Origin: Candidatus Chloroploca mongolica
GTDB lineage: Bacteria; Chloroflexota; Chloroflexia; Chloroflexales; Chloroflexaceae
Assembly: GCF_004762035.2 (NCBI RefSeq)
Contig: NZ_SIJK02000056.1
Coordinates: 1-34,032 of the forward strand
Direction of reading: 5' to 3'
DNA: 34,032 bases
Shown: piece by piece, positions 5,993 through 32,885 of the stretch
How the letters are laid out: every line of letters starts with the position of its first letter
Numbering within the stretch: the stretch's first letter is position 1
Program-made: the position numbers and the translations under genes
Notes under the pieces: generated by a model
Seen by the model: only the letters and a program-made list of their open reading frames with translations
The model's database searches: none
Told to the model about the DNA's origin: nothing

Positions 5993-6304
5993 TCACTGAG
6001 GGGCGGATGTCGTTAGCAAGGGCAGATACAGACGATGTTTCTCACTGCTGGCCTGGGGCGGTGGCAGGGCATCCTCACTGAGTTGGTAGATTCCGCCAGC
6101 GGCCTGCTCATTGCTCACATTGCCCACAGCACCATCCAGGCGATACTTCTCCGATGCGCTCACGCTAGCCCCGCCGGCGGCAGTGCTCCACCAGACGATC
6201 CTGAAATTGTTGCCCTGGGCCTCGGCTGACAGCGCACCGAAGATCACGAGCCCTGCCAGAACCATCGAGAGCAGAACGGTCTGCCACATAATAGCCTTGT
6301 TCAC
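5993..6304 (-). CDS. Small secreted protein with C-terminal YLPLL motif
   Basis: 103 residues from a GTG at 6304 (AAAGGGGG six bases upstream), giving the signal peptide MNKAIMWQTVLLSMVLAGLVIFGALSAEAQ. An alternative ATG is at 6289. The mature part has the pattern 'kYrLdGavGnvs..qaaGGiYqLs', a small-protein pattern I associate with Chloroflexota surface proteins ('sY.L.G.iGq...g...gG.Y.l..GF'). It then has LYLPLL followed by six more residues. It starts 12 bp after the stop of the FTYxGxL gene, so the two form an operon under the AraC-box promoter at 7308-7373. No enzymatic function is apparent. Confidence 0.7.
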   Translation of the reverse strand: MNKAIMWQTVLLSMVLAGLVIFGALSAEAQGNNFRIVWWSTAAGGASVSASEKYRLDGAVGNVSNEQAAGGIYQLSEDALPPPQASSEKHRLYLPLLTTSAPQ

Positions 6305-6315
6305 CAAAGCCCCCT

Positions 6316-7272
6316 TTAGTTCGTCACCATTACCCACCCATGCACAAAGCCGTTGTTGCGTAATTCCAACTGCTGCGCTCCTGTGTTGTCGGTGTTTTGC
6401 AAACAAATACCTACCAGCCACGTACCAGGGCCAGGCGTAATGGTCGTGGCGGCCGGGAGAAGTGACTGTGAGGGGTTGACTTCGACCTCCTGAATGAATT
6501 GAGCTGAAGCACCTTGTGATGACCCTTCTGGAAGATAACAGAGCAGAAGCAGCAGGGTCGCTGTGTCGCTTAATGTGGCTACAGATACCGATGCGCTCAT
6601 CGTAATGCGCTGACTAACGGTCGTCGTAACGGTCACGAGTGGTCCTACCCACAACTCACCGGGGCTAGCTGTGGTGATCGAGCCTTCGAGAAGCGCAGTT
6701 GTCGCGATATCAGTCGGCAAAGTCTGTGGTAGCCACTGGGTGCCATCCCAACCAAGCACCTGGCCTTCCGCAGGCTGAGCGTCGCCCACCGGGTGCCCCC
6801 GTAACCCGTTGGCCGAGGCGCTGGTGATGGCGTAGGGCGAGGCCGTCAGAGCTTGCCGCGGAGCGAGTATCGTGAAGAGGGCGTCCTGAGGGCAGCGAAC
6901 ACTTATCTCAAGCCAGCGTGCTGCACCTGAAAAGGCGTCGGGGCCAAACTCACCGCCACCATTGAGCGTGACCGCAAACAAGCCCTCCTGGACGGCGACA
7001 CTGTTGATGCTTTGCGTCGCACCAATTTGCGCACCATCCGACTCTGCATCCCATAGCTCAAACTGGAAGTCGCAGGTTGTAGACACCGGGCCGTCGGCGC
7101 TTTGGAGTTGGCCACGATACGTGAAGCTTGACCCGATAGCATCAGCTGTAGACACTGTGCCTTGAACCCGGCTCGCTGCGATGCCGAACCCAGAGAAGAA
7201 GATTGCGAAGATTGCGACGACAACCACTGTCAAGATAAGCGAGGAGGACAAACTCCGTCTGAGCCAAACCAT
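6316..7272 (-). CDS. Secreted FTYxGxL-type surface protein
   Basis: 318 residues, ATG at 7272 with GGAG eight bases upstream. A hydrophobic segment (SLILTVVVVAIFAIFFSGFGIAAS) acts as signal peptide or anchor. Then comes the domain 'SFTYRGQLQ..dGPVsttcDFqFeLWDA...GaqiG' through 'GaARWLEISVRCP...LAPRQALTASPYAI'. This is a widespread bacterial surface or fibre-like domain of unknown function. A GWDGTQWLPQTLP stretch follows, resembling the 'W.G..W.p' elements at the ends of phage-fibre-like domains. The C-terminal half is rich in beta strands. It is the first gene behind the second AraC-box promoter and is followed after 12 bp by the small YLPLL protein. Confidence 0.75.
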   Translation of the reverse strand: MVWLRRSLSSSLILTVVVVAIFAIFFSGFGIAASRVQGTVSTADAIGSSFTYRGQLQSADGPVSTTCDFQFELWDAESDGAQIGATQSINSVAVQEGLFAVTLNGGGEFGPDAFSGAARWLEISVRCPQDALFTILAPRQALTASPYAITSASANGLRGHPVGDAQPAEGQVLGWDGTQWLPQTLPTDIATTALLEGSITTASPGELWVGPLVTVTTTVSQRITMSASVSVATLSDTATLLLLLCYLPEGSSQGASAQFIQEVEVNPSQSLLPAATTITPGPGTWLVGICLQNTDNTGAQQLELRNNGFVHGWVMVTN

Positions 7273-16933: not shown

Positions 16934-17782
16934 CTACCGCCGCACCAGCGGCAGGTAGATGGTGGGCGCTGCCGTCGCCGCTAGGCGGCGCAGCTCACGC
17001 TGTTGCAACTCGTGAACAACCGGGATGAGGGCTGGCTCAGGCCAATCCTCAACCGTAAGCGCTAAGAGATACGCTTTCAAGGCCTCTTGCTCAGCGCTCA
17101 CGACACCGACATCGGCAAAGACGGTCTGGGTCGTTGGATCAAACCCGTTCGCAGTGAGATCAGCCTTGTAGGCAGCGATCGCGCTTGCGGTCATTGGTTC
17201 TAGATCAGCCGTCAGGACTTCAGCCTGACGGCGTATGTCGCCCGTGCGCGCGGCCGCTTCTTCGAGGAATGCCCGTGCCCGTTGACGCTGCCGCAGGTTC
17301 CAGGATCCATCGCCAGCAGCCTCGGCCAGCGCCGCCCGCCGTAGCGACTCCAACGCCGCGCGCCGTAGCGCATCAACCGTAAGCTGCTGCTCAAGATAGG
17401 TGCGCTGATCAGGATCAGTCAAGCCAGCCAGCGCTGTCAGCGTGATCGGTTGCGGGGTCACCAACTCGCGATAGGCGTTGCTTTGGGCAGGCAGCGCCGT
17501 AAGACTCACCTCGCCGTAAGCCGAAAGATAGAGCGCTTTACTAGTTGCCAGCGCAAAGATACACCCTGGGGTCATCCAGGGAAGGTTCGCCCATGGACAT
17601 ACGAGCATCGCCTCTAGCGTAGCCACAAGGCTCCCGCGATAAAAACCACGCTGCAGTTCATTCACCCGCACTTCGACTGTTTTGGGCACAGGTGGTGCGA
17701 GTCCCTGGCGATCCACCGCCGATTGCTGGGCGTTGAGCACCGCCATGTGGCGCGCGGTCTGAATCGGCTCGGGCTCATGCAC
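16934..17782 (-). CDS. 5'-truncated protein with C-terminal YLPLVRR
   Basis: 282 residues if translated from the ATG at 17782, but the first ~27 (MHEPEPIQTARHMAVLNAQQ...) are exactly antisense to a TPR-coding fragment and are not native. Genuine sequence seems to begin at about 17700 (APPVPKTVEVRVNELQRG). The body is largely alpha-helical (RTYLEQQLTVDALRRAALESL..., RQRARAFLEEAAARTGDI) and ends in IYLPLVRR. There is no signal peptide, unlike other proteins with this tail, consistent with loss of the 5' end at a rearrangement. Function unknown; possibly a dead gene. Confidence 0.55.
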   Translation of the reverse strand: MHEPEPIQTARHMAVLNAQQSAVDRQGLAPPVPKTVEVRVNELQRGFYRGSLVATLEAMLVCPWANLPWMTPGCIFALATSKALYLSAYGEVSLTALPAQSNAYRELVTPQPITLTALAGLTDPDQRTYLEQQLTVDALRRAALESLRRAALAEAAGDGSWNLRQRQRARAFLEEAAARTGDIRRQAEVLTADLEPMTASAIAAYKADLTANGFDPTTQTVFADVGVVSAEQEALKAYLLALTVEDWPEPALIPVVHELQQRELRRLAATAAPTIYLPLVRR

Positions 17783-21850: not shown

Positions 21851-24800
21851 ATGCAGCGTCATCATATTCGAGTCCTGTTGACCCTCTGTGCATTGCTCCT
21901 CATCGCCACACTGCTACCACAGGCACGAGGTTTAGTCGAGGCCCAGAGTTCCTTGGCAACCACACCCTCTGATCCGGCCCCCTTCGCCCGCCTCGCCGGT
22001 ACAGCCTCGCCTGATGGCTTGGCCCAGGCTGGCCTGCGGGTCGAGCTTGCCCAGGACGGCGTACGCCCCGAAGCGACCACCACCGATGGGGATGGCGCAT
22101 ACTTCTTCGCGATGGTTGCAGGCGGTGCCTATACCGTGACTGCGTTTGACGGCACGGGACTGCCCTTTGCAAGCGAGACGCTGCTCCTCACGTCGGGCGA
22201 AACGCTTTATGTGGATCTTGGCGAACCCTTGCGCCCCAGGAGGGCAAGCCTTGCCAATAACGAGACAAGCCCCTGCGCCTACAATGCCCCGCCGGGAACC
22301 GCGATCATCCGCGGTACTGTTACCGATGCGCTGACCGGCCAACCAGTCAGCGACGTTTTCGTCTCGGCTTTTGGGCCCCGCAATGCCTCGGCCACGACCA
22401 GTGCGACAGGCACTTATACGCTCACCGAGCTTGCGGCTGGTGCTTACAGGATCAGTTTCAGACCTCCGTCGAGTCAAAATTACCTACTGCAATACTATAA
22501 CGGTAAAGACGATTCCGCTGAGGCTGATCTGCTCACGGTTCCTGAGGGGGCCACGCTCACCAACATCAATGCGGCCCTGACCCCCGGCGCGATCATCAGT
22601 GGGCGGGTGAGTGGCGTTGGCAATGAAGCGCTCAGTGGGGTCGCTGTTACGGCCTATCGCCTCGTTGGCGAGGCGCGCTACGCTGAAGCGAGTGATCGCA
22701 CCGAGAGTGATGGGAGCTTCAGCATTGATCGCTTGCCTGCTGGTACCTATCAGCTCGAAACGTGGATTACCGATAGTGACAACGCTACTGTGCGCGCCTA
22801 TCTCAACGGCACCTCGAACGAAGTAAGCATTGCGCCCTCTAGCACCAATCCGAACGTCAACCTGAACCTTGTGCGGGGAGCCCAGTTTAGCGGGCGCATC
22901 ACCGATGCGAATGGGTCAGGAATTAGCGATATCAGGGTGACTGTGTACGATGCCACCAATGATCGCTATGTGAAGGATGTAGCGCGATCTGAGTTTAATG
23001 GCAGCTACACGTCGCTTGCGCTCCCGGCTGGCAGCTATAAGGTGCGTTTTTGGTCGAATAGCTACGCTAGTCAGGTTTACCTTGATACGTACTACAACAA
23101 CCAGCCCAGCCTTGAACTCGCCACCCCGCTTGTGCTTGGCGCTAGTGGGGTGACGCCCAACATTGACGCTCAGTTGACCCTAGGTGGCGTCATTGCAGGC
23201 AAAGTGACGGGTGCCAACGGCGTACCGCTGAACAGGGTGAGCGTCTGGGCCGGGCCAGCCGCAGGCGGCAGTGGCTCTTATGTATCAACCTCGACCGGCT
23301 CTGACGGCACCTACACCCTACGCGGGCTAGCTACAGGGCAGTACCAGGTAAGTTTTGCTACTTTAGATTCGTACGATACCGAAACTCAGCGCTACCTGGG
23401 GGAGTATTACAATAACCAGAGCACGAGCGCTACGGCGAATCCGGTCACGGTGACCGCACCGAACACCGTTGCCAACATCAATGCTGAACTGACCCGTGGC
23501 GCAATCATCAGTGGCTGTGTCAGTGGCAGTGATACTGGTCGTGGGATCAGCCGTCCCAGACTTGAGATCAGACCGGTCGGTGGCGGCTCTTCCGTCGCTA
23601 CCCGGAGTGATTCGAATGGCACCTATCGCACCCAGGCGCTGCTCCCGGGCAGCTATCGGATCACCTTCAGCGACGACTCTACCTCAAACAACTCCACCCG
23701 TCCCGGCTATGTCAGCCAGGACTATGCCACACCGGTCGTGGTAGCCAGCGACAGTCTCACCGGGATCGACGCGGTGCTGAATCCCGGCGGAGCGTTTCGG
23801 GGCACGATTACGGGCCTGGATGGGGTACCGCTGGACGGCATTGATGTGTCGATCTACACCCCATCCTCTTATGTAGCACGCGGTTCTACGTATGAGGATG
23901 GGGTGTATACCACGCGGACAGTGGCCCCTGGCCGCTACACCCTACGCCTAAGACCCTACTCGTCCAGCCCCAGTGCGGCCTATGCTAGCGTAGAGATCGG
24001 CCCCTTTGATGCGACGCTCAACGCCTTCACCATTGTGAATTACCAGATGAGCTTGGGCGGCCAGATCAGCGGACGGATCACCAATCGGGATGGTGCGGCG
24101 CTGAGTGATCTTTCGGTAGCGATCTACAACGAGGCCGGATATTTTGTGGACAGCACCTACTATGTTGACGACAGCGGCGTCTATACCACGACGGGGCTGG
24201 CCCCTGGAAACTACCGGCTTGAGTTTCGGCCTTATGGGGATGCGAATCAGTATGCGCCCCAGTTTTACAACAACAAACCTGACCTTGCCAGCGCCGATCC
24301 GGTCACGGTGAGCGAGCCGGGGATCATCCCGAATATCAATGCGGCCCTCGACATTGGCAGCGTCATCGCGGGCCAGGTCACGGTGGCAGGGGGGGCCGAA
24401 CTGGGCGCTGTTGAGGTTGCAGTCTACAATGCCGAGGGAAGGTACATCAGGACTACCTGGGTCGCGAGCGACGGCAGCTACAGTACGCCAGCCCTCGCCA
24501 GTGGCAGCTACCGGCTCTGTTTCACCCCACAGGCGAGTCGCCTGATCGCCGAGTGCTACAACAACCAGGCCACGCCAGACAACGCCACCCCGATCGTCGT
24601 CACGGCCCCCACGCCAGTCGAGAACATCAATGTCGAACTAGCCGTGGGCAGTCAACTCAAGGGCCGGGTGGTTGATGCGGCAGGGGATGGGGTTGCTGGC
24701 GTCCAGGTCGTGGTTGTCGCGCGCACGAGTACCGCGCAGGAAAACCTTATCCTGGCGCGGGCCTTCAGCGCGAGCGATGGCAGCTATACGACTAGCCCTG

Positions 24801-24967
24801 GCCTCCCGGCAGGTGCCTACCAACTCTCTTTCTATGCGCCGACCGGCAGTAACCTCGGGTTTGCCAACCTGGACGCGACGGTCGCGAGCAGCGGCACCGA
24901 TGTTGAACTCGCTGACGTCACGCTCAGCAGCGTACGGCGGGTTTACTTGCCGTTGGTGTGGCGCTAG
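21851..24967 (+). CDS. Secreted carboxypeptidase-regulatory-like repeat protein, YLPLVWR tail
   Basis: 1038 residues. Signal peptide about 1-32 (HIRVLLTLCALLLIATLLPQ). Then about nine or ten ~100-residue beta-sandwich repeats of the CarboxypepD_reg/prealbumin-like type. Each has 'GG.I.G.VT...G..L..V.V..Y', 'sdG.Yt...L..G.YrL.F' and a linker with 'YYNNqps...A.pv.V......nINa.L' (QYYNGKDDSAEAD, TYYNNQPSLELAT, EYYNNQSTSATAN, QFYNNKPDLASAD, ECYNNQATPDNAT). These domains are structural and common in large surface proteins. The protein ends RRVYLPLVWR. Ribosome-binding site weak. First gene of a plus-strand set of four, divergent from the STAND regulator. Confidence 0.9.
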   Translation: MQRHHIRVLLTLCALLLIATLLPQARGLVEAQSSLATTPSDPAPFARLAGTASPDGLAQAGLRVELAQDGVRPEATTTDGDGAYFFAMVAGGAYTVTAFDGTGLPFASETLLLTSGETLYVDLGEPLRPRRASLANNETSPCAYNAPPGTAIIRGTVTDALTGQPVSDVFVSAFGPRNASATTSATGTYTLTELAAGAYRISFRPPSSQNYLLQYYNGKDDSAEADLLTVPEGATLTNINAALTPGAIISGRVSGVGNEALSGVAVTAYRLVGEARYAEASDRTESDGSFSIDRLPAGTYQLETWITDSDNATVRAYLNGTSNEVSIAPSSTNPNVNLNLVRGAQFSGRITDANGSGISDIRVTVYDATNDRYVKDVARSEFNGSYTSLALPAGSYKVRFWSNSYASQVYLDTYYNNQPSLELATPLVLGASGVTPNIDAQLTLGGVIAGKVTGANGVPLNRVSVWAGPAAGGSGSYVSTSTGSDGTYTLRGLATGQYQVSFATLDSYDTETQRYLGEYYNNQSTSATANPVTVTAPNTVANINAELTRGAIISGCVSGSDTGRGISRPRLEIRPVGGGSSVATRSDSNGTYRTQALLPGSYRITFSDDSTSNNSTRPGYVSQDYATPVVVASDSLTGIDAVLNPGGAFRGTITGLDGVPLDGIDVSIYTPSSYVARGSTYEDGVYTTRTVAPGRYTLRLRPYSSSPSAAYASVEIGPFDATLNAFTIVNYQMSLGGQISGRITNRDGAALSDLSVAIYNEAGYFVDSTYYVDDSGVYTTTGLAPGNYRLEFRPYGDANQYAPQFYNNKPDLASADPVTVSEPGIIPNINAALDIGSVIAGQVTVAGGAELGAVEVAVYNAEGRYIRTTWVASDGSYSTPALASGSYRLCFTPQASRLIAECYNNQATPDNATPIVVTAPTPVENINVELAVGSQLKGRVVDAAGDGVAGVQVVVVARTSTAQENLILARAFSASDGSYTTSPGLPAGAYQLSFYAPTGSNLGFANLDATVASSGTDVELADVTLSSVRRVYLPLVWR

Positions 24968-25127: not shown

Positions 25128-26609
25128 ATGTGCTTACTGATCAGTCAGCGAAACGGCCTCCTACTCACCCTCGCTCTCGTTTTGTTCCTGGCTCTGGCCA
25201 GCGCCGTTCGCGCCGACGAAACGCCCGTACCAATCCTGGCCACTGCCTGCCCGCCCAGCATCCCCTTTGGCGAGTTGTTCGACTGCTCGTTGGAGGCAGC
25301 CGGTGAGGTTGACCGTTACACTTTTACCGCTACGACCAACGATAGCTACATCATCCGTATCGTGCGCACCTCGGGCACCTTTGAACCCAGTATCGTCGTG
25401 CGTAACCCGAATGGGGTAGCAGTGTGTGAACGTTATACCTTTGGCAACAAGATCGAGCTTGATTGCACGGCAACAAGTAGTGGTGCCTATAGCTTTGAAG
25501 TGCAATCGTCGGGGACGAATCGCTCCACCATCGGTGGCTACCAGGTCTATATGCAGCGGCTCAATGGCGTTGGTAATGCCACCCCGCTCAGCATCGGCAG
25601 CTTCACCCAGGGTAGCCTGGCGGCACCGATTGAGAGCAAGACCTACAGCTTTACGGCGGCGCAAAATGATCTGATCCGCTTGCGGCTCTTTCCTACGGCT
25701 GGTACAATCCATCCGCGCATGCGCGTCTACAATGCGGCGGGGGTTGAACAGTGCGCGGTCTACCGCGTCTCGACCAGCCTGGCAACCATCGAAACGTGTG
25801 CGATTACGGCGGCGGGTACCTACAGCCTGTTGGTAGACGATAACACCACCAGTCGCACTGGGGCCTACGACCTACATTTTCAGCGCCTGAACAATCCGGG
25901 CAATGCCACCCCGCTGACGCTGGGCAGTGTCACCACAGGTAATCTGGAACGAGTCGCTGCCATGAATGTCTATCGTTTTGACGCAGAAGCCAATGATCAA
26001 GTAATCCTCCGCTTGATCAAAGAAGCCGGGGCTTTCCTGCCGCAAATGACGCTCTTTGACCGCGCTGGGGTGAGTATTTGTAGTACGTATAGCTTGCGAG
26101 CCCTAGCGCGAATCGAGCCGTGTGCCATTCCGGCGACAGGCCAGTACAGTCTTTTGATTGAGGATCAGCGCCTGGAAAATACTGGCGCCTACCGGCTGCA
26201 CCTACAGCGGCGCAATAATCCAGGGAATCCGACCGCCATCGCCTTTGGACAGAGCCGTCAGAGCAGCATTGCTTCGATCGCAGACTTCGGTACCTTCAGC
26301 TTTGAGGGCGTTGCGGGCGGGCAGGTGCGCCTGACGATGCTGCGTACCAATGGCAGCTTCTGGGCGCAGGTGAGCGTTTACGACCCGGCTGGCCTTGAAC
26401 TCTGCACTGGCCGATCATTTAATCCGGGAGTGGAGGACGTGACGCTCAACTGTACGCTGAAGACGACCGGGCAACATACGATCATCACTGAAGATAGGAA
26501 CAATACAGGTGTTGGTGACTATACACTCACCCTGGCCTGTCTCAGCGGGAGTTGCAGTCCGGCCGCGCCGCGCAACGAACGGGTCTATCTGCCGTTGGTG
26601 CGGCGCTAA
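25128..26609 (+). CDS. Secreted four-repeat PPC-like protein, YLPLVRR tail
   Basis: 493 residues from the ATG at 25128, with GAGGAG nine bases upstream. Signal peptide about 1-29 (GLLLTLALVLFLALASAVRA). Four ~110-residue beta-sandwich repeats follow, each with 'Y.F.a...d...lrl......f.p.m.vy...G...C', a second cysteine near 'i..c.i...G.ysllv.d', and a joining phrase 'LNnpGNaTPl.lGs...g.l'. This resembles bacterial pre-peptidase C-terminal (PPC) domains. The paired cysteines per repeat may form disulphides outside the cell. Ends in RVYLPLVRR. It lies 160 bp after the previous gene with no terminator between them. Role probably structural or carbohydrate-binding. Confidence 0.87.
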   Translation: MCLLISQRNGLLLTLALVLFLALASAVRADETPVPILATACPPSIPFGELFDCSLEAAGEVDRYTFTATTNDSYIIRIVRTSGTFEPSIVVRNPNGVAVCERYTFGNKIELDCTATSSGAYSFEVQSSGTNRSTIGGYQVYMQRLNGVGNATPLSIGSFTQGSLAAPIESKTYSFTAAQNDLIRLRLFPTAGTIHPRMRVYNAAGVEQCAVYRVSTSLATIETCAITAAGTYSLLVDDNTTSRTGAYDLHFQRLNNPGNATPLTLGSVTTGNLERVAAMNVYRFDAEANDQVILRLIKEAGAFLPQMTLFDRAGVSICSTYSLRALARIEPCAIPATGQYSLLIEDQRLENTGAYRLHLQRRNNPGNPTAIAFGQSRQSSIASIADFGTFSFEGVAGGQVRLTMLRTNGSFWAQVSVYDPAGLELCTGRSFNPGVEDVTLNCTLKTTGQHTIITEDRNNTGVGDYTLTLACLSGSCSPAAPRNERVYLPLVRR

Positions 26610-26787: not shown

Positions 26788-28761
26788 GTGATCAAGCGTT
26801 CCAGTCCTGTGCCATGGCTGGTTGTCCTAGGTAGTGGGCTCTGGCTCATCACTCTGGTACTGATTGGGCATACGCAGGCTCAGCAAACAATTCTGGGCCG
26901 CGTCTACCTGCCACTGGTCATACGCGAAGATGTGCGTCAGGCAGGTGCTACCTGGAGTGGGCCGCTAGCGATAGCACCCCATGATGGGTTGCTCTGGGTA
27001 GTGAATCCTGATGCTGGTAGTGTGAGCGCCCTCGACCTCGATCAATTACGTCTCGTGGTGACTCTACCGGTTGGGGGCGAGCCATGGTCGTTGGCCTTCA
27101 CGCCCGATGGGGCGACGTTGTTGGTACTGGATCGAGCCAATGGCGAACTGATTGCGCTCGACCCGCTGCGCTTGATTATGCGGGCACGTATCAGTGTTGG
27201 GCCGGAGCCCGCTCACGTCGTAGTACATCCGACCGGCCAACTCGCCTACGTCAGTGTCGGCGTGGCCCACCACCTCGTCATCATTGATCTAGCTACGCTG
27301 CAGATCGAGCGTCAGGTCGCCACTGCCGCCCATCCCTACGCACTCGCCATCAGCGCCGATGGAGCCCAAGTCTACCTGACCCACTTCCTCGCTCAGCCCC
27401 TCCAGTCGGGCGGTATGGGGCTTGATGACGGAGCACTGGGGCTGATCAGCGTGTTCGGCCCCCTGGGGGATTTGCAGCGTGTGATCAGCCTGCCGCCCGA
27501 CCAACACGGCTTTGCCAATCAACTGGCAGGGATTAGCCTCTTTGGCGAACGGGCCTGGGTGCCGCAGATTCGCGCTGCACCCGAGCAGCCCAACACGCTT
27601 AGCACAACCGTCTTTGCGGCCGTCTCAAGTCTCGATCTGGCCGCTGGCCGCGAAGACGAGCACGCCAAGTTGAACCTGAACGACGAAGAGGTCTTCGGTT
27701 CGCCGGTCAATAACCCGGTCGCCGCTGTCCCCAGCCCCGATGGGCAGACGCTGTACGTTGTGCTGGCGGGCAGCAACCTGATCGAGCTCGTGGATGTAGC
27801 CCAGTCGGATCGTCCACGCTTGCTCGGGTTCATCGCCACAGGCTTGAATCCGCGTGGCATGGTGCTCAGCGCCGATGGGCAGCGTGGCTATGTGTGGAAC
27901 TACCTGGCGCGCTCGGTGACGGTACTTGATCTAGTACAACGGACGCCGATCGCCGAAATTGTCGTTACTCCCGAGACCTTGCCGCCTGATCTGTTGCGGG
28001 GCAAGATCCTCTTCAACACCGTCGCTGATCCGCGCATGGCCAAGTCGTCATGGGTCTCGTGTGCGAGTTGCCACGCTGACGGTGGCACTGATGGCGTGAC
28101 CTGGAGCCTCGCCGACGGTCCGCGCCAGACCCCGGGGATCTGGAATGCGGGCGCAACCTTGCCCTGGCACTGGTCGGCAGCCCTTGATGAACCTCAGGAT
28201 GTCGAGGATTCGATCCATACGCTGCAATTTGGCCTGGGCTTAGCGCCCGGGGCCGACCCGCCGCTGCTCGGCACTCCGAACGACGGGCGCTCAGCGGATC
28301 TGGATGCCCTGGCCCGCTTCTTGGTCGAAGGCATCCGCACCCCACAGGGAGTACTGCCAACGGCAGCCAGCCATCAGGGGCGTGCGCTCTTTCAAGAACT
28401 TGGTTGCGTGAGTTGTCATGGTGGCCCCACCTGGACAATTAGTAGCATCCCAGGGGTGGTGGGGCAACTCGACCCCGATGGCAATGGCATGGTTGATCAG
28501 CTCTTGCACGACGTCGGTACCGCGACCGCTGCCGATATACGTGGCGCAACCGGCTTCGATGTGCCCGCACTGCTTGGCCTGGCCTTCACCGCACCCTACA
28601 TGCACGCTGGCTCGCTGCCTGATCTCAAGGCCGTCCTGGATTCAGGCCACCCAATGCCGGGCCAGCCCCGCGTGCGGCCCCTGAGTAGGCTTGAACGGGA
28701 AGCCCTGATCGCCTTCTTGCTGACGATTGACCTAGAGACTGAGCCTCTGTTTGCGCCGTAA
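26788..28761 (+). CDS. Exported YVTN beta-propeller fused to a di-heme cytochrome c peroxidase-like domain
   Basis: 657 residues from the GTG at 26788, AGGA about nine bases upstream. Signal peptide about 1-31 (WLVVLGSGLWLITLVLIGHTQA), then RVYLPLVIR at 38-46, the YLPLV motif placed at the start of the mature protein. Residues about 60-400 are a YVTN-like propeller ('VnPdaGSVSALDLDql', 'GGEPWSLAFTPDGATLLVLD', 'AVPSPDGQTLYVVLAGSNLI'). Residues about 405-650 are a CCP/MauG-like cytochrome with two heme sites, CASCH (425-429) and CVSCH (540-544), and the family signature 'FDVPALLGLAFTAPYMHAGSLPDLKAVLD'. It probably carries out peroxide reduction or heme-based oxidation of a partner outside the membrane; the substrate is unknown. 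It is followed after 29 bp by the last gene of the set. Confidence 0.9.
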   Translation: MIKRSSPVPWLVVLGSGLWLITLVLIGHTQAQQTILGRVYLPLVIREDVRQAGATWSGPLAIAPHDGLLWVVNPDAGSVSALDLDQLRLVVTLPVGGEPWSLAFTPDGATLLVLDRANGELIALDPLRLIMRARISVGPEPAHVVVHPTGQLAYVSVGVAHHLVIIDLATLQIERQVATAAHPYALAISADGAQVYLTHFLAQPLQSGGMGLDDGALGLISVFGPLGDLQRVISLPPDQHGFANQLAGISLFGERAWVPQIRAAPEQPNTLSTTVFAAVSSLDLAAGREDEHAKLNLNDEEVFGSPVNNPVAAVPSPDGQTLYVVLAGSNLIELVDVAQSDRPRLLGFIATGLNPRGMVLSADGQRGYVWNYLARSVTVLDLVQRTPIAEIVVTPETLPPDLLRGKILFNTVADPRMAKSSWVSCASCHADGGTDGVTWSLADGPRQTPGIWNAGATLPWHWSAALDEPQDVEDSIHTLQFGLGLAPGADPPLLGTPNDGRSADLDALARFLVEGIRTPQGVLPTAASHQGRALFQELGCVSCHGGPTWTISSIPGVVGQLDPDGNGMVDQLLHDVGTATAADIRGATGFDVPALLGLAFTAPYMHAGSLPDLKAVLDSGHPMPGQPRVRPLSRLEREALIAFLLTIDLETEPLFAP

Positions 28762-28790
28762 AAGGAAGTCTACGCTGAAAGGACACGCTG

Positions 28791-31700
28791 ATGAATCGGT
28801 TCCTGCGCTCCGCACCAACCGTGCTTGCCCTGATCGCCATCTTGTTGCTCAATTCATGGCCGGTGGCACCGTTACGTGCCCAGGTGCCCCAACCACAACC
28901 ACAGGCTGCGGCTAGCCCCGCCCAGAATAGCCAACGGGCGTACCTCCCGTTGGTCATTCGCCCCACGGGTCCACCCAACTTCACCCTGAGTAGTCCGCTC
29001 GCTGGCTCAACCGTGGGCGGCACCACGCTGGTCGTGGCGCAAGTACTGGATGCTGGCTCGGTCAGCAGCGTCAGTTTCCGCGCAGGTAACCTGGATCTGG
29101 GCACCGATAGTACGCCTGCGGATGGCTTTCGGGCCTTTTTGGATGCTAGCAGGTTGCCAGCGGGTTCGGTGACGATTACTGCTACCGCCCGCGGGCCAGC
29201 CGGTGAGGCAAGCCAGAGCGTGGAGGTCATTGCGCAGCCCAACCCGCCAGCGAGCGCAACCATTGGTAGTCAGGGCGGCGTGCTTGGCAGCGACTCGGGG
29301 GCGACGATTACGATTCCGCCGGGCACAGTCAGCGATAACACCACTGTGAGCATCCGCGAGCGTACCCAGGCCCAGGTGACCACCGAATCCGGGATCGTCT
29401 GGGACGACATCGGCGTGACCTTCCTCGGCGACATCGCCATTCAGTCAAACCAGCCGCTCTCGCGGCCAGTGGAGATCAGCACCCAAGGCTTTGCCAATCG
29501 CATTCAGCCCGGCCAGGCGGTGGTCACCTACAATCTGTTACCTGACCAGGATGGCGACGGGATTGGTGAATTGGTGGTCGCGAGTACCGCCGAGGTGGCA
29601 CCGAACGGGGCGATTGTGAGTACGCCCGTTAATAATACCGCTGTTATTCGCAGTGCAACCGTGCGCAATGCTTCCGGGCGCACTACTTTGCTGACGCGTG
29701 ATAATCGTGTTGTCGTCGCGCCAGGGGAACTCCTCACAGTAATTACTGAAGGGCTTAACGCAGTCTCATTGCAAGGAAATGTGTTAACCTTCAGATCGGC
29801 AACAGGCAAGAGCTACAGCATTGCCGCCCTTATACTACCCACCCAGGCCAACCCCTTACAACAGGAACTGAAGACTCTGCTCCCATCATTGCCACCCGGC
29901 GACGTAACTATCTCGCTCTTTGACGCGAGTAGTGGTACAACTATTGAAGTTGGCCTCGTAACAATCACTACCGCGCCCGCCCTTACTCGACCCGCCTCTG
30001 AGATTATTGAGGCGTACTACGCCCAGCATCTGATCTTCCTGAGTTCGCTTCCGACAGTTACCCCTGAGGCTGTCGAGGAGCGAGATTCTCTGGTGAGCGC
30101 AACAACTCAAATGCGCGATGCCTTCCGCCAACTGTTCACTCTTTCGGATCCTCAAGTTCAGGGCGGGCTAGTCGAGTTTGCTACGATAATCGAAGGGTCA
30201 GGGGTGCTCAAGAGCGAGGGGGCTCAACAGCGAGAGCTGTTAATGTTAGCAGCTAACGGCTGCTTTACCCCTGAAGAGCGACAGCGTCTCCAAGATGATT
30301 TTGACAATGCGATCATTGTAGGTACTGTTGCTTGTACAATATTCACTGCCATCGCCGCAGCTGCTGGCGGGGTTCCGGGTGTCATCGTGGGTTCTATTTG
30401 TGCGGGAGCACTTATCACAGGCGATAAGAAGCTTAATCGCGCAATTGATCGAGCTCCAACGTGTCCGAATGAGTCTCCACCACCACCTCCTCTCCCACCC
30501 TGCCAGCCCACGCCTAGTGGCGGCGTCCCATCTAGCCGCGGTATCGGCGGTGCGCCGCCCCCCGGCGGGAATGGCTGTGGCAATGCAGCAGGGAGTGGGG
30601 GTGGCACTGCAGCCTTAGCCCAGGTCGGGAGTGGGAGCCTCCAGGGGCGTTACATCGTCAAGGTCTTCCCGCAGGCGGGCGGCCGGGCGCTCAGCCCCTT
30701 CACTGGCGCGACCGACGCGGGCGGCTACTTCTTCCTGCCCTTCATCCCGCAAGGCGAACCCTTCCGTGCCGTGGCTGTTGATACGGTTACGGGCGCTTCA
30801 CGCAGCTTCGAGGGCGTCGGCCCGGCGACTGGTGAATCGGCCTACATGTTTTTCGACTTCTTGGATGCCGAAGACAACCGGGTTGCGATCAATATCGGCG
30901 ACACAGTCAGCGATGGGGAGCCGCAGGCGGGGGCGGGGAATATCGAGAACCCCGGGGCCTTCGATGTCTACACGTTTGAGGCCGAACCCGACCGCGAAGT
31001 GATCTTCGAAGTGCTCAACAAAGCCGCTGGCCTGAGCCAGACACGCTGGAAGTTGGTCAGCCCCACGGGCACCGAAGTCTTTAACCGCGTCATGGCGACG
31101 ACCCAACTGATCGCTCTGCCCGAGCCCGGCACTTATACCCTGACGGTCGGTGATGATACCAGCGGTGGCACCGGCACCTACTCGTTCAAACTCGTTGGCA
31201 TTCCGTTGCCGGATCGTTTCAACATTGCCATTGGCGACACGGTTGCCCCTGGCATCCCTGGGCCTGGGGCTGGCACGATTGAGCAGTCGTTGGTCAAGGA
31301 TCGCTATACCTTTACCGCCACGGCGGGACAGCGGATCTTCTTCGATGCGATCAGCAACTCGGTCTCCTACTTCCGCCTGAACTGGACGCTGCTCGATCCC
31401 AACGGGAATCGGGTGGGAAGTGTGAACTCCTTCGTCGACACCGACCCGATTACCCTGGTCGCCGCTGGCAGTTACACCATCGTCATTGATGCTGATGCTG
31501 ATCTCGTGCCCACCTATAGCTTCAAGCTTTGGGATGTGCCCCCGCCGCAGCAGTTCAACATCGCGATTGGCGCTACGGTCGCCAATGGGATACCTGCCGC
31601 TGGGGCGGGTAATATCGAGACCCCGGGCGTGATTGACCGCTACACCTTTACCGCCACGGCGGGACAGCGGATCTTCTTCGATGCGATCAGCAACTCGGTC

Positions 31701-32885
31701 TCCTACTTCCGCCTGAGTTGGACGCTGCTCGACCCCAACGGGAATCCGGTGGGGAATGAGAACTCCTTCGACGACACTGACCCGATTACCCTGGTCACCG
31801 CTGGCAGTTACACCATCGTCATTGATGCGGATACTGATCTCGTGCCCACCTATAGCTTCAAGCTTTGGGACGTGCCAGCGCCGCAGCAGTTTGCCATCGC
31901 GATTGGCGATACGGTCGCCAATGGTATACCTGCCGCTGGGGCTGGCAATATCGAGACCCCGGGCGTCATTGACCGCTACACCTTTACCGCCACAGCGGGA
32001 CAGCGGATCTTCTTCGATGCGATCAGCAACTCGGTCTCCTTCACCCAACTGAGTTGGACGCTGCTCGACCCGAACGGTAATCAGGTGGGGAATGAGAACT
32101 ACTTCGCCGACATCGACCCGATTACCCTGGTCGCCGCTGGCAGCTACACGATCGTCATTGATGCTGATGGGGATCGCGTCCCCACCTACAGCTTCAAGCT
32201 TTGGGATGTGCCCCCGCCGCAGCAGTTCACCATCGCGATTGGCGATACGGTTGCTGATGGGGTGCCTGCCGCTGGGGCTGGCAACATCGAGACCCCGGGC
32301 GTGATTGACCGCTACACCTTTACGGCCACCGCGGGGCAGCGGATCTTCTTCGATGCGATCAGCAACTCGGTCTCCTTCACCCAACTGAGTTGGACGCTGC
32401 TCGACCCGAACGGTAATCAGGTGGGGAATGAGAACTACTTCGCCGACATCGACCCGATTACCCTGGTCGCCGCTGGCAGCTACACGATCGTCATTGATGC
32501 TGATGGGGATCGCGTCCCCACCTACAGCTTCAAGCTTTGGGATGTGCCCCCGCCGCAGCAGTTCACCATCGCGATTGGCGATACGGTTGCTGATGGGGTG
32601 CCTGCCGCTGGGGCTGGCAACATCGAGACCCCGGGCGTGGTTGACCGTTATACCTTCACAGCCACGGCGGGGCAGGCGATCTTCTTTGATGCGATCACGC
32701 CTACAAGTTCGTCACTTTTGCGCTGGTCACTGCGTGACCCGAACGGCAATCTCGTAGGCTCCCAAAGTCGTCGTTTCGCTGATACCGACCCCATTACCCT
32801 CAATCTTGCCGGTTCGTATACCCTTGAGGTGACGGCTGAAGGTGATCGCACGCTCGTCTACTCGTTCCGCCTCGAGCCACGTTAG
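28791..32885 (+). CDS. Giant secreted multidomain protein with N-terminal YLPLVIR and six PPC-like repeats
   Basis: 1364 residues, ATG at 28791 with AAGGA nine bases upstream. Signal peptide about 1-30, then AYLPLVIR at 50-57. Domains in order: Ig-like (about 58-150, 'LSSPLAGSTVGGTTLVVAQV'); ZU5-like (about 165-250, 'GGVLGSDSGATITIPPGTV'); a mostly helical region with a hydrophobic stretch near 505-540 (VGTVACTIFTAIAAAAGGVPG) that could span a membrane; a Pro/Gly-rich linker (PPPPPLPPC); a carboxypeptidase-regulatory-like domain (about 620-680); and six 112-residue PPC-like repeats from residue 699 to the end. ZU5 domains elsewhere precede autoproteolytic or death-type modules, but no such module is seen here. 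The C-terminus has no YLPLV tail. Last gene before a strong terminator. Confidence 0.9.
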   Translation: MNRFLRSAPTVLALIAILLLNSWPVAPLRAQVPQPQPQAAASPAQNSQRAYLPLVIRPTGPPNFTLSSPLAGSTVGGTTLVVAQVLDAGSVSSVSFRAGNLDLGTDSTPADGFRAFLDASRLPAGSVTITATARGPAGEASQSVEVIAQPNPPASATIGSQGGVLGSDSGATITIPPGTVSDNTTVSIRERTQAQVTTESGIVWDDIGVTFLGDIAIQSNQPLSRPVEISTQGFANRIQPGQAVVTYNLLPDQDGDGIGELVVASTAEVAPNGAIVSTPVNNTAVIRSATVRNASGRTTLLTRDNRVVVAPGELLTVITEGLNAVSLQGNVLTFRSATGKSYSIAALILPTQANPLQQELKTLLPSLPPGDVTISLFDASSGTTIEVGLVTITTAPALTRPASEIIEAYYAQHLIFLSSLPTVTPEAVEERDSLVSATTQMRDAFRQLFTLSDPQVQGGLVEFATIIEGSGVLKSEGAQQRELLMLAANGCFTPEERQRLQDDFDNAIIVGTVACTIFTAIAAAAGGVPGVIVGSICAGALITGDKKLNRAIDRAPTCPNESPPPPPLPPCQPTPSGGVPSSRGIGGAPPPGGNGCGNAAGSGGGTAALAQVGSGSLQGRYIVKVFPQAGGRALSPFTGATDAGGYFFLPFIPQGEPFRAVAVDTVTGASRSFEGVGPATGESAYMFFDFLDAEDNRVAINIGDTVSDGEPQAGAGNIENPGAFDVYTFEAEPDREVIFEVLNKAAGLSQTRWKLVSPTGTEVFNRVMATTQLIALPEPGTYTLTVGDDTSGGTGTYSFKLVGIPLPDRFNIAIGDTVAPGIPGPGAGTIEQSLVKDRYTFTATAGQRIFFDAISNSVSYFRLNWTLLDPNGNRVGSVNSFVDTDPITLVAAGSYTIVIDADADLVPTYSFKLWDVPPPQQFNIAIGATVANGIPAAGAGNIETPGVIDRYTFTATAGQRIFFDAISNSVSYFRLSWTLLDPNGNPVGNENSFDDTDPITLVTAGSYTIVIDADTDLVPTYSFKLWDVPAPQQFAIAIGDTVANGIPAAGAGNIETPGVIDRYTFTATAGQRIFFDAISNSVSFTQLSWTLLDPNGNQVGNENYFADIDPITLVAAGSYTIVIDADGDRVPTYSFKLWDVPPPQQFTIAIGDTVADGVPAAGAGNIETPGVIDRYTFTATAGQRIFFDAISNSVSFTQLSWTLLDPNGNQVGNENYFADIDPITLVAAGSYTIVIDADGDRVPTYSFKLWDVPPPQQFTIAIGDTVADGVPAAGAGNIETPGVVDRYTFTATAGQAIFFDAITPTSSSLLRWSLRDPNGNLVGSQSRRFADTDPITLNLAGSYTLEVTAEGDRTLVYSFRLEPR
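30885..32882 (+). repeat. Six in-frame 336-bp tandem repeats
   Basis: Units begin near 30885, 31221, 31557, 31893, 32229 and 32565, an exact 336-bp (112-codon) period marked by 'IAIGDTV'. The first is the most diverged. From about 32003 to 32302 units 3/4 and 4/5 are base-for-base alike when shifted by 336 bp, which points to very recent duplication or gene conversion. Each unit encodes one PPC-like beta-sandwich (DRYTFTATAGQRIFFDAI, then LLDPNGN, PITLVAAGSYTIVID, YSFKLWDVP). Confidence 0.9.

What the first reader, a model, noticed from the sequence alone, without database searches (positions are those of the whole stretch)
26899..28961. Same motif moved to the mature N-terminus in two proteins
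In the propeller/peroxidase (residues 38-46) and the giant repeat protein (50-57) the motif R[VA]YLPLVIR sits just behind the signal peptide, and the C-terminus lacks it. A short strand that works at either end of the mature chain argues for a docking or polymerisation strand recognised by a partner, rather than a classical C-terminal cleavage signal.
Basis: partly seen in the sequence, partly recalled or inferred. Interest (0 to 1): 0.75.

Follow-up and report, generated by a model that had tools for sequence, protein, structure and literature searches.

The report
Export tag working from either end
Dozens of exported proteins in Chloroflexota bacteria carry the same nine-residue tag, usually as their last residues but in a clear minority just behind the signal peptide or between domains, which suggests that the tag is grasped by an unknown partner rather than being a tail that is cut off.

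Summary
P0001 (propeller/peroxidase) has RVYLPLVIR at residues 38-46 and P0002 (giant repeat protein) has RAYLPLVIR at residues 49-57, both just behind a signal peptide and both absent from the C-terminus. NCBIfam already lists the motif as the 'YLP-box putative sorting motif' (NF050076; also NF053834 'ultrashort_CTERM'). In this genome 39 of 50 model hits are C-terminal and 5 N-terminal. In exported proteins the N-terminal zone is enriched about 16-fold over the interior (7 of 28,559 against 2 of 132,699 positions); reversed controls give 0. N-terminal copies recur in other Chloroflexota genomes and keep the C-terminal consensus, including the last Arg. Homologues carry the tag at opposite ends: CAP proteins, CBM96 proteins, a GH39-like enzyme, and weakly P0001's own family. 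Tagged proteins rarely have another membrane anchor, and no C-tag sits beside a clear transmembrane helix, so this is not a tripartite CTERM signal. The N-tag of P0001 is predicted unstructured. Exclusion of the two ends is not shown: one protein has both, and the data are underpowered. Best reading: a position-independent docking peptide for an unidentified envelope or secretion receptor. The partner and the lack of cleavage are inferred.

The parts
26788..28761 (+). P0001: exported YVTN/lactonase-type beta-propeller fused to a di-haem cytochrome c peroxidase/MauG-like domain, 657 aa, with an N-terminal YLP tag
   Evidence: relatives
26899..26925 (+). N-terminal YLP tag RVYLPLVIR, residues 38-46, a few residues behind the predicted signal peptide
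   Evidence: (15.9 bits, over the cut-off of 15; 12.2 bits in the whole-protein scan); pLDDT below 50 at residues 28-52
28791..32885 (+). P0002: exported 1364-aa protein with Big_7 and PPC-type repeats and an N-terminal YLP tag
28935..28961 (+). N-terminal YLP tag RAYLPLVIR, residues 49-57
   Evidence: (15.6 bits; not listed in the whole-protein scan)
21851..24967 (+). P0003: exported protein of carboxypeptidase-regulatory-like repeats with a C-terminal YLP tag (RVYLPLVWR at 24938-24964)
   Evidence: (13.9 bits, below cut-off)
25128..26609 (+). P0004: exported PPC-repeat protein with a C-terminal YLP tag (RVYLPLVRR at 26580-26606)
   Evidence: NF050076 15.5 bits; 19.1 bits
16934..17782 (-). 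P0006: open frame ending TIYLPLVRR* (C-terminal tag); no clear signal peptide in the frame as read
   Evidence: (15.9 bits)
5993..6421 (-). P0007: short frame with a signal-peptide-like stretch and a weak C-terminal tag (RLYLPLLTT, 4 residues before the stop)
   Evidence: not among the NF050076 matches

Best explanation
The YLP box ([RTQ]-V-[YF]-L-P-L-[VI]-x-R, often with an aromatic residue just before it) is a short docking peptide of exported Chloroflexota proteins that works from the C-terminus, from the mature N-terminus or from an inter-domain linker. After export it sits on a flexible linker and is captured, probably as an extended strand, by a dedicated receptor in the cell envelope or in a secretion apparatus, which retains or routes otherwise soluble proteins. 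Shown: the tag, its strong enrichment in genes with a signal peptide, its shared consensus at both ends, its end-swapping between homologues, and the absence of a clear helix beside it. Inferred: the receptor, the strand geometry, and that the tag stays on the mature protein.
For: N-zone enrichment and zero reversed controls. Same logo at both ends: L and P of LP 99-100% in both, final R in 75% of 32 N and 90% of 147 C copies, preceding Y/F in about a third of both. Homologues with opposite ends: CAP proteins L252 (N-tag) and L186 (C-tag), E 7e-26, both PF00188; CBM96 proteins L161 (N) and L143 (C), 43.7% over 451 aa; GH39-like L123 (N) and L177 (C), 30% over 496 aa. Of 101 tag-masked homologue pairs (E up to 1e-10, alignment at least half of the shorter frame, identity up to 97%), 82 are C-C, 6 C-N, 6 C-internal, 6 N-N and 1 internal-internal. 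P0001's Roseiflexaceae relative L273 lacks the N-tag and ends TVFVPLIGQ* (weak, score 7.5). N-tags conserved in P0001, P0002, DPBB and L163/L191 families. P0001's tag has pLDDT below 50 and no strand, next to a mostly confident propeller. No 18-aa window of KD 1.8 or more beside any of 145 C-tags; 2 of 53 tagged against 129 of 293 untagged signal-peptide genes have another TM-like segment.
Against: No receptor found: in the regions held, the families that recur in 5 or more genomes look like ABC-type ATPases and one dehydrogenase by eye. The C-terminus is strongly preferred in this genome (39 of 50), and 101 of 147 C-tags end exactly at the stop, so a free C-terminus may matter for most clients. 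Some tags lie in genes for which my rule finds no signal peptide (own: 3 hits; relatives' regions: 19 hits, false positives included). Both structure models are single-chain and shallow (6 and 2 sequences); that of P0002 is poor overall (mean pLDDT 47.5). Nothing here shows that the tag survives on the mature protein.
Confidence: 0.6

Rival explanations
1. Processing signal: a protease or transpeptidase recognises YLPLVxR. C-terminal copies are trimmed or ligated to the envelope; N-terminal and internal copies mark removal of a propeptide.
For: NCBIfam calls it a putative sorting motif. The final R is conserved. Two internal copies (C83, C160) lie between a long N-terminal region and a C-terminal domain that looks catalytic by eye, and are followed by GG. 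Sortase genes are present in 21 of 22 genomes tested, 4 matches in this one.
Against: The residue after the tag is Pro in 19% of N copies, poor for cleavage after Arg. Cleavage would untag P0001 and P0002. No clear helix beside C-tags. Sortases are also in 9 of 10 comparison genomes without NF050076 matches at E 0.2; exosortase is absent from this genome and over cut-off in only 1 of 12 tag-bearing genomes.
Confidence: 0.22
2. Export-stage signal: the tag is read transiently by a chaperone or secretion machine (for passage across an outer-membrane-like layer) rather than by a surface anchor.
For: Tagged proteins mostly bear a signal peptide, rarely another TM-like segment, and belong to several folds. 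Two of three Chloroflexales strains imaged had a diderm-like envelope (PMC7332563, abstract and passages).
Against: No machine identified. It cannot be told apart from the best explanation with sequence alone; it differs in where the receptor sits.
Confidence: 0.13
3. The N-terminal copy is simply the first strand of the neighbouring domain, and the resemblance to the C-terminal tag is coincidence.
For: The tag looks strand-like, and beta-propellers can be closed by an N-terminal strand (recalled).
Against: P0001's tag is outside the predicted propeller, with pLDDT below 50; the same peptide precedes unrelated folds (DPBB, CAP, CBM96, GH39-like); four non-Chloroflexota relatives of P0001 that I examined show no score above 4.1.
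Confidence: 0.04

Closest known systems
NCBIfam NF050076 sort_motif_YLP and NF053834 ultrashort_CTERM ('YLP-box putative sorting motif-containing protein')
   Same: The same motif; P0004's C-terminal copy passes both cut-offs, and the P0001 and P0002 N-terminal copies pass that of NF050076 as stretches (15.9 and 15.6 bits).
   Different: The second model's name implies a C-terminal tag. The N-terminal and inter-domain copies, and the swapping of ends between homologues, are not in anything I could read; the models' own descriptions were not available to me, so the curators may know of them.
Tripartite C-terminal sorting signals: LPXTG/sortase, PEP-CTERM/exosortase, GlyGly-CTERM/rhombosortase, MYXO-CTERM/myxosortase
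   Same: Many otherwise unrelated exported proteins per genome share only a short tag.
   Different: Those consist of motif, transmembrane helix and basic residues at the C-terminus (abstracts of PMC11980579 and PMC3237569). Here there is no clear helix, 101 of 147 C-tags have nothing after the motif, and the tag also occurs at the N-terminus.
Type IX secretion sorting domain (TIGR04183) of Bacteroidota
   Same: C-terminal routing of many exported proteins (recalled).
   Different: A 72-position domain model, not a 9-residue peptide; the only match among P0001-P0004 is far below cut-off (P0003, 10.1 bits against 23).
Short linear docking motifs in general (analogy, recalled)
   Same: Short, unstructured, position-independent, recognised by a partner.
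   Different: No partner domain is known for the YLP box.

Membership tests
YLP-box putative sorting motif (NF050076) | Score at or over the curated cut-off of 15 bits | tested here: met
   Stretch scores 15.9 (P0001) and 15.6 (P0002); in the whole-protein scan P0001 gives 12.2, below cut-off, and P0002 is not listed, so it is met only as a stretch.
ultrashort_CTERM (NF053834) | Motif at the C-terminus (as the model's name says) and score over 10 bits | tested here: not met
   P0001 and P0002 have it at residues 38-46 and 49-57 and not at the end; P0001 scores 8.4. P0004 does meet it (14.0 bits).
Tripartite CTERM signals (LPXTG, PEP-CTERM, GlyGly-CTERM, MYXO-CTERM) | Transmembrane helix next to the motif, then basic residues | tested here: not met
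   0 of 145 C-tag frames have an 18-aa window of KD 1.8 or more in the last 60 residues plus tag; 3 reach 1.6.
PEP-CTERM/exosortase | Exosortase gene in the genome | tested here: not met
   PF09721: none in G000; over cut-off in 1 of 22 genomes tested (G049), one more match below cut-off (G209).
LPXTG/sortase | Sortase gene co-distributed with the tag | tested here: inconclusive
   Sortases in 12 of 12 tag-bearing and 9 of 10 comparison genomes: present but not discriminating.
T9SS sorting domain (TIGR04183) | Match over the curated cut-off | tested here: not met
   Among P0001-P0004 only P0003, 10.1 bits against 23, in a repeat at 851-887, not at the tag.
Docking peptide of a cognate receptor | Identified receptor and uncleaved tag on the mature protein | not testable with these tools
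   No proteomics and no complex prediction; no recurrent neighbour suggestive of a receptor.

The most novel reading that the evidence does not exclude
Chloroflexota possess a terminus-independent protein-attachment system: one unidentified receptor captures a 9-residue strand wherever it is exposed on an exported protein and so holds or routes dozens of unrelated soluble enzymes without a membrane helix, lipid or covalent sorting step.
Probability: 0.4. Interest if true: 0.8.

Novelty: new variant of a known kind. Interest (0 to 1): 0.62.

Why it matters
The layout of the multilayer Chloroflexota envelope has long been debated (PMC7332563, passages), and how proteins are held in it is, as far as my searches went, open. 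A tag that occurs at both ends shifts the likely mechanism from cleavage to capture, gives a list of clients and end-swapped homologue pairs for direct test, and could serve as a small portable surface-display peptide.

Tried and rejected
Rejected as false positives: six loci whose hit lies in a protein that does not look exported (L120, L129, L152 and L154, one homologous family that looks like a methyltransferase by eye, though my signal-peptide rule called L120 exported; L166, membrane protein; L170, Nudix-like by eye). They were dropped before the logos and the counts, but are in the relatives' counts. L121 and L153 (probable chance frames) are in the N count (32) and were dropped. Of the 50 own-genome matches, three look like chance (C33:33589, C130:9802, C138:69023).

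Limits: genes and signal peptides were called by my own simple rules, not by a trained predictor. 'N' means within 160 residues of the open frame's start. The L151/L180 copy follows a small domain and is better called internal; the C79 copy lies about 90 residues in. My first pass over genome-search loci read minus-strand loci on the wrong strand; one search corrected it. Relatives' regions were chosen through NF050076 matches, so their rates are not unbiased.

Led nowhere: literature on the motif (none of the papers listed is about it; some of these lists were cut: 20 of 41 papers, 12 of 353); recurrent neighbours; sortase as discriminator; structure of the P0002 N-terminus (too poor to interpret).
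Full report
OBSERVATION. The window is contig C112 of a 6.3-Mb genome related to Candidatus Chloroploca: a contig of a same-genus genome, G015, has the same length, 158,208 bases, as record NZ_RYFF01000008 of Ca. Chloroploca sp. Khr17, and both hold a P0001 relative at 67% identity. P0001 (26788-28761, +) is a signal peptide followed by RVYLPLVIR (residues 38-46), a YVTN/lactonase-type propeller and a di-haem cytochrome c peroxidase-like domain. Neither ends in the motif. The two genes upstream, P0003 and P0004, do. The four neighbouring genes thus carry the tag at C, C, N and N.

KNOWN NAME. NCBIfam holds the motif as NF050076 (sort_motif_YLP) and NF053834 (ultrashort_CTERM), both 'YLP-box putative sorting motif-containing protein'. 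None of the papers listed by my searches is about it (open PubMed Central papers only, some lists cut). The models' descriptions were not available, so I cannot say whether the curators already knew N-terminal copies.

CENSUS. NF050076 gives 50 matches in this genome at E up to 10. Read in context: 39 are C-terminal, 5 N-terminal (P0001, P0002, C72:317799, C55:111752, and C79:2051 about 90 residues in), 3 internal, and 3 look like chance. In other genomes, for the best-scoring matches with loci (contexts): G186, 30 of 41 matches read, 21 C, 7 N (one of them, L180, behind a small domain), 2 internal; G221, 15 of 18 read, 5 C, 5 N, 5 internal; G129, 15 of 17 read, 7 C, 5 N, 3 tiny chance frames; G032 with G033, 30 of 31 read, 26 C, 2 N, 2 internal. 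The N-terminal form is therefore recurrent, and its share differs between genomes. Among 201 phylum genomes of at least 90% completeness, 47 have a match at E up to 0.2, and 0 of 14 control genomes do. At looser E-values control genomes match too: 12 of 14 at E up to 10 with 2 over cut-off, 1 of 14, over cut-off, at E up to 0.4. Weak single hits therefore mean little.

CHANCE. Over 1.44 Mb of the genome (1,050 called genes, 361 with a signal peptide by a simple rule), a PWM trained on the genome's C-terminal copies finds, at score 15 or more, 7 hits in the first 80 mature residues, 2 in interiors and 43 within 12 residues of the end; genes without a signal peptide give 0, 1 and 2; reversed proteins give 0. 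N versus interior: odds ratio 16, p = 1.4e-4; collapsed to 5 hits, p = 2.7e-3. In 1.0 Mb of relatives' regions, chosen for holding hits, the counts are 7 N, 5 interior and 38 C in 217 signal-peptide genes, and 2, 6 and 11 in genes without one; the latter include the false-positive family and genes whose start my rule missed. The tiles of this genome favour contigs known to hold tags, so the absolute frequencies are not genome-wide rates.

SAME TAG AT BOTH ENDS. After dropping six false-positive loci, 32 N, 13 internal and 147 C copies share one logo: [RTQ]-V-[YF]-L-P-L-[VI]-x-R, with Y or F just before it in about a third of N and C copies. The final R is kept at N (75%) as at C (90%), so it is not merely a chain end. 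N copies are followed by Pro/Ala/Ser-rich linkers. In the P0001 family (three relatives, 60-67% identical to P0001) the LPL of the tag is invariant while most of the leader and linker around it varies. The tag is also kept in P0002's relatives, in a DPBB family across two bacterial families (L128/L262, 52.5% identity; L179, the same G186 gene as L128, is PF03330) and in L163/L191 (65% over 180 aa). P0001 itself is sporadic: 4 of 41 genomes of the family, this one included. The G020 relative matches only residues 204-655 and shows no tag in its frame, which may be a loss or a broken assembly.

END-SWAPPING. With the tag masked, homologues have it at opposite ends: CAP proteins L252 (signal peptide, tag, linker, CAP) and L186 (signal peptide, CAP, linker, tag), both PF00188; CBM96 proteins L161 (N) and L143 (C; a DUF11 domain stands before the tag); GH39-like L123 (N) and L177 (C; an fn3-like stretch before the tag, below Pfam's cut-off). 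In P0001's own family the Roseiflexaceae relative L273 aligns along the propeller and peroxidase, has no N-tag, and ends TVFVPLIGQ*. That tail scores only 7.5, a level reached by 2 of 361 reversed zones and 3 of 689 C-zones of non-signal-peptide genes in this genome (0 of 217 and 13 of 489 in relatives' regions), so this single case is suggestive only. Of the non-Chloroflexota relatives, L270, L271, L272 and L274 (Porticoccus, Verrucomicrobia, Wenzhouxiangella) show no score above 4.1 in the frame read; L275 was not examined.

EXCLUSION. Not demonstrated. In the genome's own set 1 protein has both (C84), 6 N only, 42 C only, 282 neither, p = 1.0; in relatives' regions 0, 7, 38 and 155, p = 0.35. 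Pooled, 1 of 27 N-tagged frames with a visible stop has a C-tag; binomial P is 0.12, 0.09 or 0.025 for assumed C-tag rates of 13, 14 or 19%.

MECHANISM. C-tags have no clear helix beside them (0 of 145 at KD 1.8; 3 at 1.6), and tagged proteins rarely have another TM-like segment (2 of 53 against 129 of 293 untagged signal-peptide genes in this genome; 3 of 53 against 50 of 154 in relatives' regions; the untagged sets surely include membrane proteins). That argues against the tripartite architecture of LPXTG, PEP-CTERM, GlyGly-CTERM and MYXO-CTERM signals (abstracts). Exosortase is absent from this genome; sortases are in 21 of 22 genomes tested and do not track the tag. In the P0001 model the propeller is mostly confident (block means 87-94 for residues 61-200, with weak patches between 201 and 310), residues 28-52 including the tag are below 50, and the C-terminal half is poor (mean pLDDT 57.8); the P0002 model is too poor to use. 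I infer capture of an exposed peptide by a receptor. The main rival is proteolytic processing; the internal copies of C83 and C160, between a long N-terminal region and a C-terminal domain and followed by GG, are its best support.

CONTEXT. Cryo-tomography of three Chloroflexales strains reports a diderm-like envelope in two, and in Ca. Viridilinea an S-layer that forms only at the cell apices (PMC7332563, abstract and passages). Whether a tag receptor sits in any of these layers is unknown.

VERDICT. Real, recurrent and conserved; the motif itself is already catalogued, while its terminus independence appears to be new in the sources searched. The partner is unknown.

Noticed in passing
window 26788-32885 and G000:C55 (locus L072:7789-14337): The P0001-P0002 gene pair is duplicated at C55 in the same genome; both copies of both genes have the N-terminal tag (HLFLPLVLH and RVYLPVMVR at C55).
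   Followed up: yes
G000:C84 (locus L046, C-tag at contig 50889): A protein with a tag-like motif near both ends (QVWLPLIRH and RVYLPLIRR); it contradicts strict exclusion.
   Followed up: partly
G000:C83:156764 and C160:59650 (loci L055, L064): Internal tags followed by GG, lying between a long N-terminal region and a C-terminal domain that looks like a cysteine-protease type by eye (Pfam: none, and DUF6345). A possible processing site.
   Followed up: partly
L127 and L207: Internal tags each followed by a homologous C-terminal domain of about 150 residues (44% identity): an inter-domain position shared by two bacterial families.
   Followed up: partly
window 16934-17782 (-): Open frame with a strong C-terminal tag (TIYLPLVRR*) but no clear signal peptide; its start may be misjudged or in another frame.
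   Followed up: no
L120, L129, L152, L154: A conserved RVYLPLV-like stretch inside a family that looks intracellular by eye: a source of false positives for the NF050076 model.
   Followed up: partly
L161/L143 and L123/L177: In the C-tagged homologues an extra Ig-like domain (DUF11, or fn3-like below cut-off) sits between the shared core and the tag.
   Followed up: partly
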